From positions 1-30,637 of IMG/VR virus record IMGVR_UViG_3300021178_000033: a stretch of 30,637 nt of DNA. The stretch is one strand, 5' to 3'. Position numbers and translations under genes: made by a program. Positions 4,083 to 14,580 of the stretch are shown here, piece after piece. The notes below the pieces were generated by a model. It saw only the letters and a program-made list of their open reading frames with translations, had not been told where the DNA came from and ran no database searches. The stretch comes from a virus. How positions within the stretch are numbered: position 1 is the stretch's first letter; each line of letters starts with the position of its first letter.

Positions 4083-4375
4083 ACCGCCGTGGCATACTCC
4101 AGGCGCTTGCCGCGCTGCCGTTCCTAGGATGGCTCGGGAAAGCTGAGGCGATCGGTGTCGTTGATACGGCGATCCAGTCAGAAGGCGAGGTGGTGGTTAA
4201 GTGTGTCGAATGGCACTTTACCATAGGGTCAAATGTGGCGACTTGTTCGGATGGCAGTTTGCGGGTCTTCGATGCTCAGCAATCGTTGACACTGCCGGCA
4301 CCAGCCGCAGAGATATGGAAAGGTGTGATTGTGAGGAAAGCCATCCGCGCACAGCAAATGAAGGCCATCGCATGA
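4079..4375 (+). CDS. exported hypothetical protein with RR-type signal
   Basis: Ninety-eight residues beginning MNRRGILQALAALPFLGWLG, an arginine pair followed by a hydrophobic run and Ala-Glu-Ala, resembling a twin-arginine or Sec signal peptide. The mature part is small, with two cysteines (KCVEW, ATCSDGS). Overlaps its neighbours by ATGA. The phage also encodes another RR-signal protein at 6589. Function unknown. Confidence 0.6.
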   Translation: MNRRGILQALAALPFLGWLGKAEAIGVVDTAIQSEGEVVVKCVEWHFTIGSNVATCSDGSLRVFDAQQSLTLPAPAAEIWKGVIVRKAIRAQQMKAIA

Positions 4376-4608
4376 GCACGGAACCTGACGTTCTCGACAT
4401 ATCCGTTGAAGGCTATGTGTCCGAGAAGGAATGTGGTCATTTCAGCTTCGGCATTGAGATTGACTTGTGCCTCACAGAGCAAGAAGCGGATCGCGCCTGT
4501 TGCATGTTGCAGCAATTGCTAGCGGCCAACATGGGCTTTGTGCTAGGCAAAGACCTAACCATGGAGTCGGCTGAGGTAGTGCCGCCGGCTGGTTCTATGA
4601 TGAACTGA
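4372..4608 (+). CDS. small acidic hypothetical protein
   Basis: ATG at 4372 overlaps the previous stop (ATGA), which decides this start over the longer frame open from 4201. The 78-residue acidic product starts MSTEPDVLDISVEGYVSEKE and has three cysteines (one at ECGHF, two at CC) and the segment LCLTEQEADRACCMLQQLLA. No family recognised. It precedes the large terminase by four bases. Confidence 0.6.
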   Translation: MSTEPDVLDISVEGYVSEKECGHFSFGIEIDLCLTEQEADRACCMLQQLLAANMGFVLGKDLTMESAEVVPPAGSMMN

Positions 4609-8008: not shown

Positions 8009-8073
8009 GGGCGAGCCCCGCCGCAGTCGGTTATCAGTGGATGACAGTCCGATTGCACATCTTGTGTTCGCCC
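8009..8073 (+). ncRNA. Y RNA-like small RNA, copy 1
   Basis: A 65-nt structured element. The closing stem GGGCGA (8009-8014) pairs perfectly with TCGCCC (8068-8073). An asymmetric internal loop follows, GCCCCGCC on the 5' side and ACATCTTGTGT on the 3' side. The inner stem GCAGTCGG (8023-8030) pairs with CCGATTGC (8049-8056) and is followed by TTAT and a small hairpin. The same GCCCC / TCGGTTA / CCGA / TGTGT skeleton occurs in three other elements in this window. Position directly upstream of the Ro gene and shared architecture suggest a Ro-bound Y RNA. It lacks the tRNA-like domain. No convincing promoter seen; TTGACA at 7970 has no matching -10. Confidence 0.7.
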
Positions 8074-8081
8074 TCGGGAAA

Positions 8082-8206
8082 CTGTGAGCCCCAGGAAGTT
8101 CGGTTATCTAGCGGTCGTTGGTTCGAGTCCAACCGTGGAGTAATCTGCGTAGCTCAGTTGGTAGAGCATTAGACTACAACCCCGATCTTCGCTCATGTGT
8201 TCACAG
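8082..8206 (+). ncRNA. yrlA-like: Y RNA with circularly permuted tRNA-like domain, copy 2
   Basis: A 125-nt element. The closing stem CTGTGA (8082-8087) pairs with TCACAG (8201-8206), followed by GCCCC. The inner stem GAAG-T-TCGG (8095-8103) pairs with CCGA-T-CTTC (8182-8190). Inside is a tRNA in permuted order: 3' anticodon-stem strand TCTAG (8107-8111), five-base variable region, T arm GTTGG-TTCGAGT-CCAAC (8117-8133), acceptor stem CGTGGA (8134-8139) and TCTGCG (8144-8149) closed by GTAA, T8-A9, canonical D arm (8152-8167), then the 5' anticodon strand TTAGA (8169-8173). Y RNAs with tRNA-like modules encoded beside Ro are established in bacteria and phages (YrlA type). Confidence 0.88.
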
Positions 8207-8215
8207 CTTCTTGAG

Positions 8216-8231
8216 GGCCTTGTTGAAGGCC
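8216..8231 (+). promoter_or_regulatory. hairpin over the Ro ribosome-binding site
   Basis: GGCCTT (8216-8221) and AAGGCC (8226-8231) form a perfect 6-bp stem with a GTTG loop, ending seven bases before ATG 8238. The only Shine-Dalgarno-like sequence for the Ro gene, GAAGG (8225-8229), lies mostly in the 3' arm, so the hairpin should limit initiation. It could also mark the 3' border of the upstream Y RNA. No T-run follows, so it is not a standard terminator. Confidence 0.5.
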
Positions 8232-8237
8232 ACTAAA

Positions 8238-9911
8238 ATGGAAATATGGCGATCTATTCCAAGGTGGCCTGCTTATGAGGCCAGTTCACTTGGCAACATT
8301 ACCAAGCCAATTCCGCAGTCAGAGCCACTTGACGAGCGGCAGGTTCCCAACAATGCCGGCGGGCACGTCTACCAGATTGATGACTGGAAGCGTTTAGATC
8401 GCTTTCTGGTTCTGGGCAGCGATTCCAGCACGTACTACCAGAAGGCCGCCGATCTCACCCGAGAGAACGCCAAGTGCGTTGAACGCTGCTATGCGCTGGA
8501 TTCCGCGCGCACCGTAGCGCGTATTGTGGAAATCTCGGATGGCGGTCGTGCACCGAAGAACGATCCTGCCATCTTCGCTCTGGCGCTCGGCGCAGCCTCG
8601 CCTGACGTGCGAACGCGCCAGCTTGCTCTGGGGGCCTTGCCGCAGGTTTGCCGCATCGGCACGCATCTATTCCAGTTCGTGACGGCAGTCCGTGCCCTTG
8701 GTCGCGGCTGGGGCCGGACGCTGAAGCGCGCCGTGGCTCGGTGGTACGATGAGAAGCCGGTCGATGCTGTAGCGTATCAGGCGATCAAGTACCGATCGCG
8801 TGAGGGCTATAGCCACAAGCGGCTGTTGCAGACAGCGCATCCGTCAGGGGGCGTCGTCAACGAAGGTCGCAACTTTGTAATACCTCTCGTAAGTCCAAAG
8901 AGGGCTGACGAGATGATCTCTAGGGTGGCGCTGTACCGTTGGCTCTGCGAGAAGGAATTTAACGAGAACAACCTTCCTGTCATTGTTCAGGCGCATCGTG
9001 CCGCGATGGCATCGACGGATGTCAAGACTTGGGTGCAGGGTGTCGAGTGGCACAATCTTCCGTGGGAGGCGCTACCGACTGAGGCCAACGCCAAGCCTGA
9101 GGTCTGGCAGGCAATGCTGCCCAAGATGGGCTTGACTGCCCTCATCCGCAATCTCGGCAACATGACACGCATCGGTGCCATCACACCGCTGTCCGATCAC
9201 GAGCGCATTGCGGTTGAGCGCATCAAGGATCGTGATGCCTTGAAGAAGGCGCGCGTGCATCCATTCACGGTGCTCCAGGCGAAGGCGGTCTATGCGACGG
9301 GGCGGGGCGTCAAGGGCAGTGGAACATGGTCGCCATCGGCGCCGATTATCGCAGCGCTTGAGGACGCATTCTATGCGGCGTTCGACAACGTGGTGCCGAC
9401 CAACAAGCGCACGCTCATTGGGCTTGATGTGTCCGGCAGCATGAGTGCGCCATTCGGCGGCACTAGCATGAGTGTTGCAGAAGCCGCTGCTGCTATGTGC
9501 ATGGTCACCGTTCGCACCGAGCCGTGGACGATGATTCGTGGCTTTGCTACGGACTTCCGTGATCTCGGCATCACGGCAAAGGATAGCCTCGAAACGGTGT
9601 TGGCGAAGACGACTAGGCAGAACTTTGGTAACACTGACTGTGCTCTGCCGATGGTCTACGCGTGGCAGCACGACTTGAAGGTTGACGTGTTCTACGTTTT
9701 CACGGATATGGAGACATGGGCCGGCTCAGTGCATCCCATGCAGGCGTTGCGTGACTATCGCTGGAAGAGTGGCATTAATGCCAAGCTGATCACCGTGGCT
9801 ATGACCAGCACAGGCTTCAGTATCGCGGACCCGAAAGACGGATGTGCATTAGATGTTGTAGGGTTCGACTCTGCGGCGCCGGCTGTGATGGCGGACTTTG
9901 CGAGGGGATGA
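8238..9911 (+). CDS. rsr: Ro60/TROVE-domain protein (Rsr-type)
   Basis: A 557-residue Ro ortholog: a ring of HEAT-like repeats that binds Y RNAs and misfolded RNA ends, closed by a C-terminal von Willebrand A domain. IPQSEPLDERQVPNNAGG and YQIDDWKRLDRFLVLGSD are characteristic of TROVE N-termini. The VWA part has the MIDAS DVSGS (Asp397, Ser399, Ser401) and TDMETW (Asp490). In Deinococcus and Salmonella, Ro uses Y RNA to tether polynucleotide phosphorylase. ATG 8238 is chosen because upstream codons lie in the Y RNA. Residues 2-20 (EIWRSIPRWPAYEASSLGN) are not Ro-like but match NUMOD4 of homing endonucleases. Its stop overlaps the next gene. Confidence 0.92.
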   Translation: MEIWRSIPRWPAYEASSLGNITKPIPQSEPLDERQVPNNAGGHVYQIDDWKRLDRFLVLGSDSSTYYQKAADLTRENAKCVERCYALDSARTVARIVEISDGGRAPKNDPAIFALALGAASPDVRTRQLALGALPQVCRIGTHLFQFVTAVRALGRGWGRTLKRAVARWYDEKPVDAVAYQAIKYRSREGYSHKRLLQTAHPSGGVVNEGRNFVIPLVSPKRADEMISRVALYRWLCEKEFNENNLPVIVQAHRAAMASTDVKTWVQGVEWHNLPWEALPTEANAKPEVWQAMLPKMGLTALIRNLGNMTRIGAITPLSDHERIAVERIKDRDALKKARVHPFTVLQAKAVYATGRGVKGSGTWSPSAPIIAALEDAFYAAFDNVVPTNKRTLIGLDVSGSMSAPFGGTSMSVAEAAAAMCMVTVRTEPWTMIRGFATDFRDLGITAKDSLETVLAKTTRQNFGNTDCALPMVYAWQHDLKVDVFYVFTDMETWAGSVHPMQALRDYRWKSGINAKLITVAMTSTGFSIADPKDGCALDVVGFDSAAPAVMADFARG

Positions 9912-10741: not shown

Positions 10742-11176
10742 ATGCGCTGTTACGTGTTTGACATTGATGGAACGCTCGCCGACATCACGCATCGCCTGCC
10801 GTTCATCCAGAAAGAGCCCAAAGACTGGGACGCGTTCTTTGACGCATGTTCAGAGGACAAGCCGATCCAGCACATGATCGAGGTGGCAAGGACGCTTTAT
10901 AGGTGTGATGCGGTCGTATTCGTGTCAGGCCGCGCCGAACGGTGTCGCAAAAAAACAGAGGTGTGGCTGATGGAGCATTTGTGGTTCTCCAATCGGCTCT
11001 ACATGCGTGGGAATGGCGATCATCGCCCTGACAATGAGGTCAAGAGCGAGTTGCTGGATCAGCTTCTGGCGGATGGCTACGAGCCGCAACTTGTGTTTGA
11101 TGATAGAAAGGTTTGTGTTGACTTTTGGCGCAGCAGAGGGATTCCTTGCGCTCAAGTCGCCCCAGGTGATTTTTGA
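10742..11176 (+). CDS. HAD phosphatase resembling the T4 Pnkp 3'-phosphatase domain
   Basis: A 144-residue HAD-superfamily phosphatase. Motif I is FDIDGTLAD (Asp7, Asp9), motif II VSGR (61-64), motif III Lys101, and motif IV FDDR (Asp120, Asp121). The end, with Trp129 and CAQVAPGDF, closely follows the end of the phosphatase half of T4 polynucleotide kinase-phosphatase (W.R.G..C.QVA.GDF), which removes 3' phosphates or 2',3'-cyclic phosphates from broken RNA. No kinase domain is attached. Next to Ro, Y RNAs and tRNAs, an RNA-repair role is attractive, but nucleotidase activity is an alternative. Ribosome-binding site GGAAGG; stop overlaps the next start. Confidence 0.8.
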   Translation: MRCYVFDIDGTLADITHRLPFIQKEPKDWDAFFDACSEDKPIQHMIEVARTLYRCDAVVFVSGRAERCRKKTEVWLMEHLWFSNRLYMRGNGDHRPDNEVKSELLDQLLADGYEPQLVFDDRKVCVDFWRSRGIPCAQVAPGDF

Positions 11177-12114: not shown

Positions 12115-12177
12115 GGGCGAGCCCCAGGCATTCGGTTATCCCATGATAATGAACCGATCGCCGCTTTGTGTTCGCCC
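12115..12177 (+). ncRNA. Y RNA-like small RNA, copy 3
   Basis: A 63-nt element with the same skeleton as the copies upstream of Ro: closing stem GGGCGA (12115-12120) with TCGCCC (12172-12177); GCCCC next to the 5' strand and TGTGT next to the 3' strand; inner stem TCGG (12132-12135) with CCGA (12154-12157), extended after a two-base mismatch by GGC/GCC; TTAT paired with ATAA as a small apical hairpin. Only nine bases separate it from copy 4. It lacks a tRNA-like domain. It is 3.9 kb from copy 1 but on the same strand. Confidence 0.7.
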
Positions 12178-12185
12178 TCTTCGAT

Positions 12186-12275
12186 AGAACGAGCCCCTTG
12201 TGTTCGGTTACCGAATGTAGCCTCGACAGAGGTGGGGTGTCGAAACCCCGATCCGACGCAGCTTGTGTTCGTTCT
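12186..12275 (+). ncRNA. Y RNA-like small RNA, copy 4, with partial tRNA-like insert
   Basis: A 90-nt element. The closing stem AGAACGA (12186-12192) pairs perfectly with TCGTTCT (12269-12275), a different sequence from the other copies but still paired. GCCCC, TCGGTTA (12204-12210), CCGA (12253-12256) and TGTGT are all kept. Inside are two hairpins, CCTC-GACA-GAGG (12221-12232) and GGGGT-GTCGAA-ACCCC (12234-12249). The second resembles a T arm with a TCGAA loop, so this may be a reduced tRNA-like module. Confidence 0.65.
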
Positions 12276-13583: not shown

Positions 13584-13607
13584 GGGATTTATATACTTGA
13601 CTCCATC
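13584..13607 (+). repeat. left terminal inverted repeat of the IS
   Basis: GGGATTTATATACTTGACTC and four more bases; the reverse complement of 15398-15421 with mismatches at two positions. The inner part supplies a promoter -35 hexamer. Confidence 0.93.
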
Positions 13608-13625
13608 CTCGTTTCGGGCTAGATT
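13597..13625 (+). promoter_or_regulatory. candidate transposase promoter
   Basis: TTGACT (13597-13602) lies inside the left inverted repeat, 17 bases before TAGATT (13620-13625). Transposase ATG is 13654. Overlap of promoter and repeat would let transposase binding repress its own transcription. Confidence 0.5.
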
Positions 13626-13653
13626 TTCGCCAGAAATTGAGGGAGATCGGGTC

Positions 13654-14580
13654 ATGTCCAAGTCCACCATTTCGACGTTCGAACTGTTCAAGAGGTTCCC
13701 GGACCAAGAAGCCGCGCGAGTCTACATTGAAGGTCGGTTGTGGCCGGCCGGCCCCAAGTGTCCTGTCTGCGGTCTCGGCGAGCGCATTTCGGTCAGGACA
13801 GGCAAGCCGGGCTTTTACCAGTGCGTCCAATGCAAGGAGGATTTCACTGTTCGCACTGGGACGATTTTCGAGCGTAGCCATGTCCCGTTGCACAAATGGC
13901 TTTACGCCATGTACCTGCTTGTGACGGCCCGCAAGGGCATATCGTCCATGCAACTCGCCAAGGAAATCGGGATCACGCAAAAGTCGGCTTGGTTCGTTCT
14001 GCACCGCCTGCGAGAAGCGTGCGGCGGTGACTTGACTATGCTTCAAGGGCTGATCGAAATTGATGAAACCTATGTCGGCGGGATCGAGGCCAACAAGCAC
14101 GAACACAAGAAGCTGAAAGCTGGGCGCGGCGCGGTAGGCAAGACGGCCGTCCTGGGGATGCGCGAGCGCGGGGGGCGGACCAAGGCGTTCACGCTCGCCA
14201 ACACGGACGCACAGACAATCCAAGACGTGATCGTGCAAAACGCCGCAGTCGGCTCGATGCTCCACACCGATGAGCATGGCGCTTACCGGGATATCGGCGG
14301 ACTGTTCTTCAAGCACGAAAGCATCAATCACAGCGCGGGCGAATTTGTTCGCGACGGCGTGACCACCAACTCGATTGAGAGCGTGTTCGCGGTTCTGAAA
14401 CGCGGGCTTGTTGGCGTCTATCACCATGTCACGCCGAAGCACCTCGGCCGCTATGTCGATGAATTTGCCTTCCGCTTGAACGAAGGCAATGTGGCGCGGC
14501 ATACGTTGGACCGCCTCGACAGTTTCGTTGACGGCGTTGCTGGCAAGCGGCTGACATACAAGGAACCGTCCGGTGGATAA
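13654..14580 (+). CDS. tnp: IS1595-family (ISXO2-like) DDE transposase
   Basis: A 308-residue transposase from ATG 13654 (a frame to 13597 runs into the inverted repeat). N-terminal zinc ribbon CPVC (Cys36, Cys39) and CVQC (Cys57, Cys60); an HTH-like region MQLAKEIGITQKSAWFVLHR; then the catalytic core with IEIDETYVGG (Asp137), MLHTDEHGAY (Asp206) and TNSIESVFAVLKRG (Glu242), with a normal lysine-rich stretch after the first Asp. All catalytic residues are present, so it is probably active. It acts on the 24-bp terminal repeats. Overlaps the passenger gene by eight bases. Confidence 0.93.
   Translation: MSKSTISTFELFKRFPDQEAARVYIEGRLWPAGPKCPVCGLGERISVRTGKPGFYQCVQCKEDFTVRTGTIFERSHVPLHKWLYAMYLLVTARKGISSMQLAKEIGITQKSAWFVLHRLREACGGDLTMLQGLIEIDETYVGGIEANKHEHKKLKAGRGAVGKTAVLGMRERGGRTKAFTLANTDAQTIQDVIVQNAAVGSMLHTDEHGAYRDIGGLFFKHESINHSAGEFVRDGVTTNSIESVFAVLKRGLVGVYHHVTPKHLGRYVDEFAFRLNEGNVARHTLDRLDSFVDGVAGKRLTYKEPSGG

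What the first reader, a model, noticed from the sequence alone, without database searches (positions are those of the whole stretch)
8082..8206. A circularly permuted tRNA inside a Y RNA
T arm, acceptor stem and D arm occur in the order 3' half then 5' half. The acceptor strands pair (CGTGGA/TCTGCG) and are joined by a GTAA (GNRA-type) tetraloop, and the anticodon stem (TTAGA/TCTAG) is the junction to the Y-RNA stem, with no anticodon loop. Canonical D-loop and T-loop bases are all present. This should fold as a tRNA mimic and may be recognised by host tRNA-modifying or -processing enzymes.
Basis: partly seen in the sequence, partly recalled or inferred. Interest (0 to 1): 0.85.

Follow-up and report, generated by a model that had tools for sequence, protein, structure and literature searches.

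The report
Phage Y RNA with tRNA-mimic domain
A virus of bacteria carries, next to its Ro60 gene, a small RNA whose tip is a tRNA shape with its two halves swapped; the feature is real and conserved, but it belongs to a class of bacterial and phage RNAs (YrlA-type Y RNAs) already described.

Summary
At 8107-8173 lie, in this order, a T arm, an acceptor stem capped by GTAA, U8-A9 and a D arm, closed by a 5-bp helix and set in a Y-RNA stem (8082-8206). A geometric scanner finds it once in the window and never in 100 Markov windows. Rfam's YrlA model finds it at 40 bits, E 1.3e-7. It stands 31 bases before a Ro60 gene (8238-9908). The same permuted module occurs at 84 of 169 phage, viral and bacterial Ro60 loci, with compensatory changes in acceptor and T stems and closing helix, and with the tRNA-specific 15-48 tertiary pair co-varying, 66 of 75 against 37 expected. 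So it almost certainly folds as a tRNA mimic. This is the known YrlA class of bacterial Y RNA, whose tRNA-like domain, modification by DusA and TruB, crystal structure and presence in phages are published. Small additions: the window holds four Y RNAs, only this one with the tRNA module; the 'anticodon stem' is the weakest part; the nearest designs (6-bp acceptor, GNRA loop) are in Methylobacterium. Verdict: real, new member of a known kind.

The parts
8082..8206 (+). Y RNA with tRNA-like domain (YrlA type); basal stem possibly extends to 8070-8218
   Evidence: RF02553, 40 bits, E 1.3e-7 over 8097-8191; Ro-stem motif GAGCCCC..CGGTTATC..TGTGTTC with pairing outer stem
8107..8173 (+). circularly permuted tRNA-like domain
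8107..8111 (+). closing ('anticodon stem'-like) helix, 5' strand TCTAG
   Evidence: helix 1: 5 pairs, each with compensatory changes, 74% of cells paired; absent in register in L002
8117..8133 (+). T arm, GTTGG TTCGAGT CCAAC
8134..8149 (+). acceptor stem CGTGGA/TCTGCG capped by GTAA (GNRA) tetraloop
   Evidence: helix 3: 6 of 6 pairs with compensatory changes
8150..8167 (+). U8-A9 and D arm GCTC AGTTGGTA GAGC
8169..8173 (+). closing helix, 3' strand TTAGA
8009..8073 (+). second Y RNA, without tRNA-like domain (GGGC stem, CGGTTATC motif)
12115..12177 (+). third Y RNA, short
   Evidence: (z -3.9)
12186..12275 (+). fourth Y RNA, with two hairpins in place of the tRNA domain
   Evidence: (z -3.4)
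8238..9911 (+). Ro60 ortholog (TROVE + Ro60 vWA), 557 aa, stop codon included
   Evidence: PF25045 E 3.8e-61, PF05731 E 2.3e-42; 361 phage records

Best explanation
This is a phage-encoded YrlA-type Y RNA, partner of the phage Ro60 protein encoded just downstream. Its basal stem with the GGTTATC-containing internal loop binds Ro60 (inferred from conservation in all four Y RNAs and in relatives). Its tip folds as a tRNA-like body in which the two halves are in swapped order, the acceptor end being closed by a tetraloop and the anticodon end opening into the Y stem (fold shown comparatively). The tRNA-like tip most likely acts as the effector module that brings Ro60 together with a host RNA enzyme, as published for bacterial Y RNA and PNPase, so that the phage steers RNA decay or RNA quality control in the infected cell (inferred by homology; this step alone about 0.5). 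Modification at the T and D loops by host TruB and Dus enzymes is likely (inferred).
For: Rfam YrlA match E 1.3e-7; adjacency to Ro60; the same permuted module at 43 of 89 phage/viral and 41 of 80 bacterial Ro60 loci; compensatory changes at 14 of 20 pairs, covariation score 0.560 against 0.169 in shuffles; 15-48 Levitt pair 66/75 against 37 in shuffles, 0 of 10,000 reaching it; closest relatives L135 and L134/L002 keep the RNA in the same place; YrlA domain layout, DusA/TruB modification, PNPase tethering and phage occurrence in the literature.
Against: Score is below Rfam's gathering cut-off (40 against 69 bits). Minimum-energy folding prefers another fold by 2.4 kcal/mol and gives the closing helix about 3%. 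Expression, Ro60 binding, partner enzyme and modification were not tested. The scanner selects for acceptor, T and D pairing, so covariation there is partly by selection, although the 15-48 pair and the closing helix were not selected for. Shuffles do not correct for relatedness.
Confidence: 0.93

Rival explanations
1. The tRNA-like tip is a decoy: it competes with tRNA for host anticodon nucleases or other tRNA-acting enzymes, protecting phage translation, with Ro60 as carrier.
For: The authors of PMC7790460 propose that YrlA could competitively inhibit an anticodon nuclease; the phage carries four ARAGORN tRNA calls and a PNKP-type phosphatase domain protein at 10742-11173, an RNA-repair-like setting.
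Against: The module has no anticodon loop, the part such nucleases read; no RNA ligase was found among the ORFs scanned; nothing here tests competition.
Confidence: 0.12
2. It is the junction of two neighbouring ordinary tRNA genes (3' half of one, 5' half of the next), not a mimic.
For: Scanning other viral contigs by pattern alone finds several junctions of this outline, some next to ordinary tRNA genes.
Against: ARAGORN finds no tRNA at the site or within 120 bases of it; there is no anticodon arm on either side, the spacer is 4 bases, and the halves pair with each other with covariation.
Confidence: 0.01
3. A permuted tRNA gene as in some algae and archaea, whose precursor is circularised and matured to a functional tRNA.
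For: Same order of halves.
Against: No anticodon loop, no CCA-equivalent spacer in the window copy, embedding in a Ro-binding stem, and location beside Ro60.
Confidence: 0.01

Closest known systems
YrlA, bacterial Y RNA (Rfam RF02553; Chen et al. 2014; Wang et al. 2018, PDB 6CU1, as cited in PMC8394870)
   Same: Basal stem, Ro60/Rsr partner gene nearby, T arm - acceptor - D arm in permuted order, capped acceptor
   Different: Phage genome; different stem sequences; 6-bp acceptor with GTAA loop; scores below the Rfam gathering cut-off
Y RNAs at Ro60 loci of Methylobacterium/Methylorubrum (L228, L247, L248, L262, L267, L276, L283, L288)
   Same: Same 6-bp acceptor with GNRA tetraloop and same T/D arms; L288 even has GTAA
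   Different: Cellular; basal stem sequence differs
Y RNAs of actinophages (Bixzunavirus, Gordonia, Microbacterium, Streptomyces phages; L004-L009)
   Same: Permuted tRNA domain beside a phage Ro60 gene
   Different: Mostly longer acceptors or other loops, closing helix mostly 2-3 bp
Permuted tmRNA (RF04321)
   Same: Permuted halves of a tRNA-like domain
   Different: No tag reading frame; no Rfam match in the window

Membership tests
Bacterial Y RNA with tRNA-like domain (YrlA type) | encoded next to a Ro60/Rsr gene | tested here: met
   Ro60 at 8238-9908, 31 bases downstream
Bacterial Y RNA with tRNA-like domain (YrlA type) | long stem pairing the 5' and 3' ends with conserved Ro-binding internal loop | tested here: met
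   shared motif in four RNAs of the window with different, self-complementary outer stems; binding itself not tested
Bacterial Y RNA with tRNA-like domain (YrlA type) | domain resembling D, T and acceptor arms of tRNA, in permuted order | tested here: met
Bacterial Y RNA with tRNA-like domain (YrlA type) | dihydrouridine and pseudouridine by Dus and TruB | not testable with these tools
   substrate positions present in sequence; shown for Salmonella YrlA
Bacterial Y RNA with tRNA-like domain (YrlA type) | tethers Ro60 to PNPase or another effector | not testable with these tools
   published for bacterial Y RNA
Rfam RF02553 (formal curated family) | score at or above the gathering cut-off of 69 bits | tested here: not met
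   40 bits; other Ro60-linked phage Y RNAs also fall short at 28-47 bits, so the model is narrower than the class
Permuted tRNA gene | anticodon loop and maturation to a tRNA | tested here: not met
   no anticodon loop; no ARAGORN call at the site
tmRNA (including permuted form) | tag reading frame and tmRNA model match | tested here: not met
   no tmRNA in the window

The most novel reading that the evidence does not exclude
A phage set of one Ro60 and four Y RNAs, only one with a tRNA-like tip, works as a swappable kit: the shared stem loads Ro60, and the different tips bring different host enzymes or tRNA-targeting nucleases under phage control during infection, the tRNA-like one acting as decoy or recruiter.
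Probability: 0.15. Interest if true: 0.6.

Novelty: new member of a known kind. Interest (0 to 1): 0.3.

Why it matters
The class is known, but what phages gain from Ro60 and tRNA-mimic Y RNAs is not. A compact phage locus with four Y RNAs, one of them a tRNA mimic, is a tractable place to ask. Practical point: such RNAs are missed by Rfam's cut-off and sometimes mis-called as tRNAs.

Tried and rejected
Thermodynamic folding as proof: not decisive. Tandem-tRNA junction: rejected. A single-protein scan of genomes found no Ro60 relative; the alignment query did. Promoter and terminator scans around the RNA were uninformative; a stretch TTGACACAGATA(T/A)AGGGG upstream is conserved in L002 and L135 but has no clear -10 box. 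The primary YrlA papers (PMC4201824, PMC6281776, PMC6047535) are not held, so they are cited through papers that quote them.

Full report
What is there. The window is a 30,637-base viral record with terminase, portal and a weak major-head-protein match; terminase and portal relatives include phages of Roseobacter, Paracoccus and Caulobacter. At 8238-9908 it encodes a 557-residue Ro60 ortholog (TROVE and Ro60 vWA domains; 361 phage records have a relative). Just before it lies the RNA that was reported.

The permuted order T arm (8117-8133), acceptor stem with GTAA loop (8134-8149), U8-A9 (8150-8151), D arm (8152-8167), framed by TCTAG/TTAGA (8107-8111/8169-8173) and a 5-base variable loop (8112-8116), is exact. 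A scanner for this geometry hits the window once and 100 Markov windows not at all. Rfam's YrlA model aligns over 8097-8191 with E 1.3e-7 in a 351-base search, though below its curated cut-off.

Is it a fold or a coincidence of letters? Thermodynamics alone is undecided: the cloverleaf-like form is 2.4 kcal/mol above the minimum, and its closing helix has about 3% probability. Comparison decides. From 169 Ro60 loci of phages, viral contigs and bacterial genomes the scanner finds the permuted module in 43 of 89 phage/viral and 41 of 80 bacterial loci (score 14 or more). In an alignment of 14 of them (chosen for short loops and similar acceptors, including the window and its closest relatives), 14 of 20 pairs have compensatory changes; covariation is 0.560 against 0.169 for shuffles and at most 0.156 for slid partners. 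Acceptor and T pairing were partly selected by the scanner. The closing helix and the tertiary 15-48 pair were not: the closing helix in canonical register averages 2.08 pairs against 0.85 with shuffled partners, and the Levitt pair (G15-C48 or A15-U48) is present in 66 of 75 against 37 expected, never reached in 10,000 shuffles. Relatedness is not corrected for, but the modules come from very diverse hosts. The locus L135 (74% Ro60 identity) changes two of five closing pairs on both sides while keeping them (A-U to G-C, U-A to A-U).

The 'anticodon stem' is the least constant part: 2-3 pairs is commonest, 5-6 in a minority that includes the window, and L002, the closest relative by Ro60 sequence after the identical contig L001, has none in register. 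The GNRA cap is one of several: of 44 tetraloops, 19 are GNRA and 9 UNCG; other loops are 3 to 36 bases. The nearest designs, 6 bp plus GNRA, are in Methylobacterium and Methylorubrum, in line with an alphaproteobacterial host, which remains a guess.

Surroundings. Four RNAs of the window share GAGCCCC-(3 to 9 bases)-YGGTTAY ... TGTGTTC closed by outer stems of different sequence that each pair with themselves: 8009-8073, 8082-8206, 12115-12177 and 12186-12275. Different stems with the same internal motif are what a Ro60-binding stem should show. Only 8082-8206 carries the tRNA-like module. In relatives L134 and L135 the basal stem of this RNA is 17 uninterrupted pairs; here it is the same with one mismatch, reaching 8070-8218, so the mature RNA may be longer than stated. 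It then overlaps by four bases the 3' strand of the first Y RNA (8070-8073), so the two outermost stems exclude each other in one transcript.

Comparison with the known. PMC8394870 describes YrlA as a Y RNA with a large end-to-end stem and a domain like the D, T and acceptor arms of tRNA, modified by DusA and TruB, binding Rsr through the stem and PNPase through the effector domain, with crystal structure 6CU1. PMC7765460 notes YrlA in phages, citing Sim and Wolin 2018. PMC7790460 cites Chen et al. 2014 for the tRNA-like domain and suggests it may inhibit an anticodon nuclease. Rfam's own YrlA consensus has the same permuted order. The finding is therefore a new, unannotated member of a known class, not a new kind.

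Mechanism. Shown here: conserved fold and link to Ro60. Inferred: Ro60 binding by the basal stem; recruitment of a host enzyme such as PNPase by the tRNA-like tip; modification by host tRNA enzymes. Less likely: decoy for tRNA nucleases.

Noticed in passing
8009-8073, 12115-12177, 12186-12275: Three further Y RNAs without tRNA-like module, sharing the Ro-stem motif.
   Followed up: partly
L007 2171-2237: GenBank 'tRNA-Asn' of Microbacterium phage SM23 overlaps a YrlA-like RNA (2207-2272) and probably is its T arm mis-called; ARAGORN makes similar calls over T arms at several other Ro60 loci, e.g. L200, L206, L226, L263, L283.
   Followed up: partly
L135 3326-3458: A third Y RNA just before Ro60 has a T arm and capped acceptor-like stem but no D arm: a partial tRNA mimic.
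   Followed up: no
L137, L138, L216 acceptor loops: Loops such as ACTTAC or ACCTAC after GGTCC resemble a tRNA 3' end followed by a tRNA 5' half (GGGCCGGTAGCTC), hinting that the permuted module arose from adjacent tRNA genes.
   Followed up: no
10742-11173: PNKP-type phosphatase domain protein (PF25109) downstream of Ro60: possible RNA-repair link.
   Followed up: no
13597-14577: IS1595-like (ISXO2) transposase gene inside the phage contig, next to the tRNA genes.
   Followed up: no
L008 5027-5083: Pistol ribozyme between tRNA-Trp and tRNA-Gln genes of Gordonia phage GMA2, downstream of its Ro60 and Y RNA.
   Followed up: no
L006 4468-4889 and L008 4306-4717: tmRNA matches, absent from the annotation shown, beside Ro60 in Gordonia phages Sixama and GMA2; in GMA2 an annotated hypothetical protein (4359-4490) lies within it.
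   Followed up: no
L031 5626-5697: Permuted tRNA-like module with ACTTCAC loop, possibly a permuted tmRNA.
   Followed up: no
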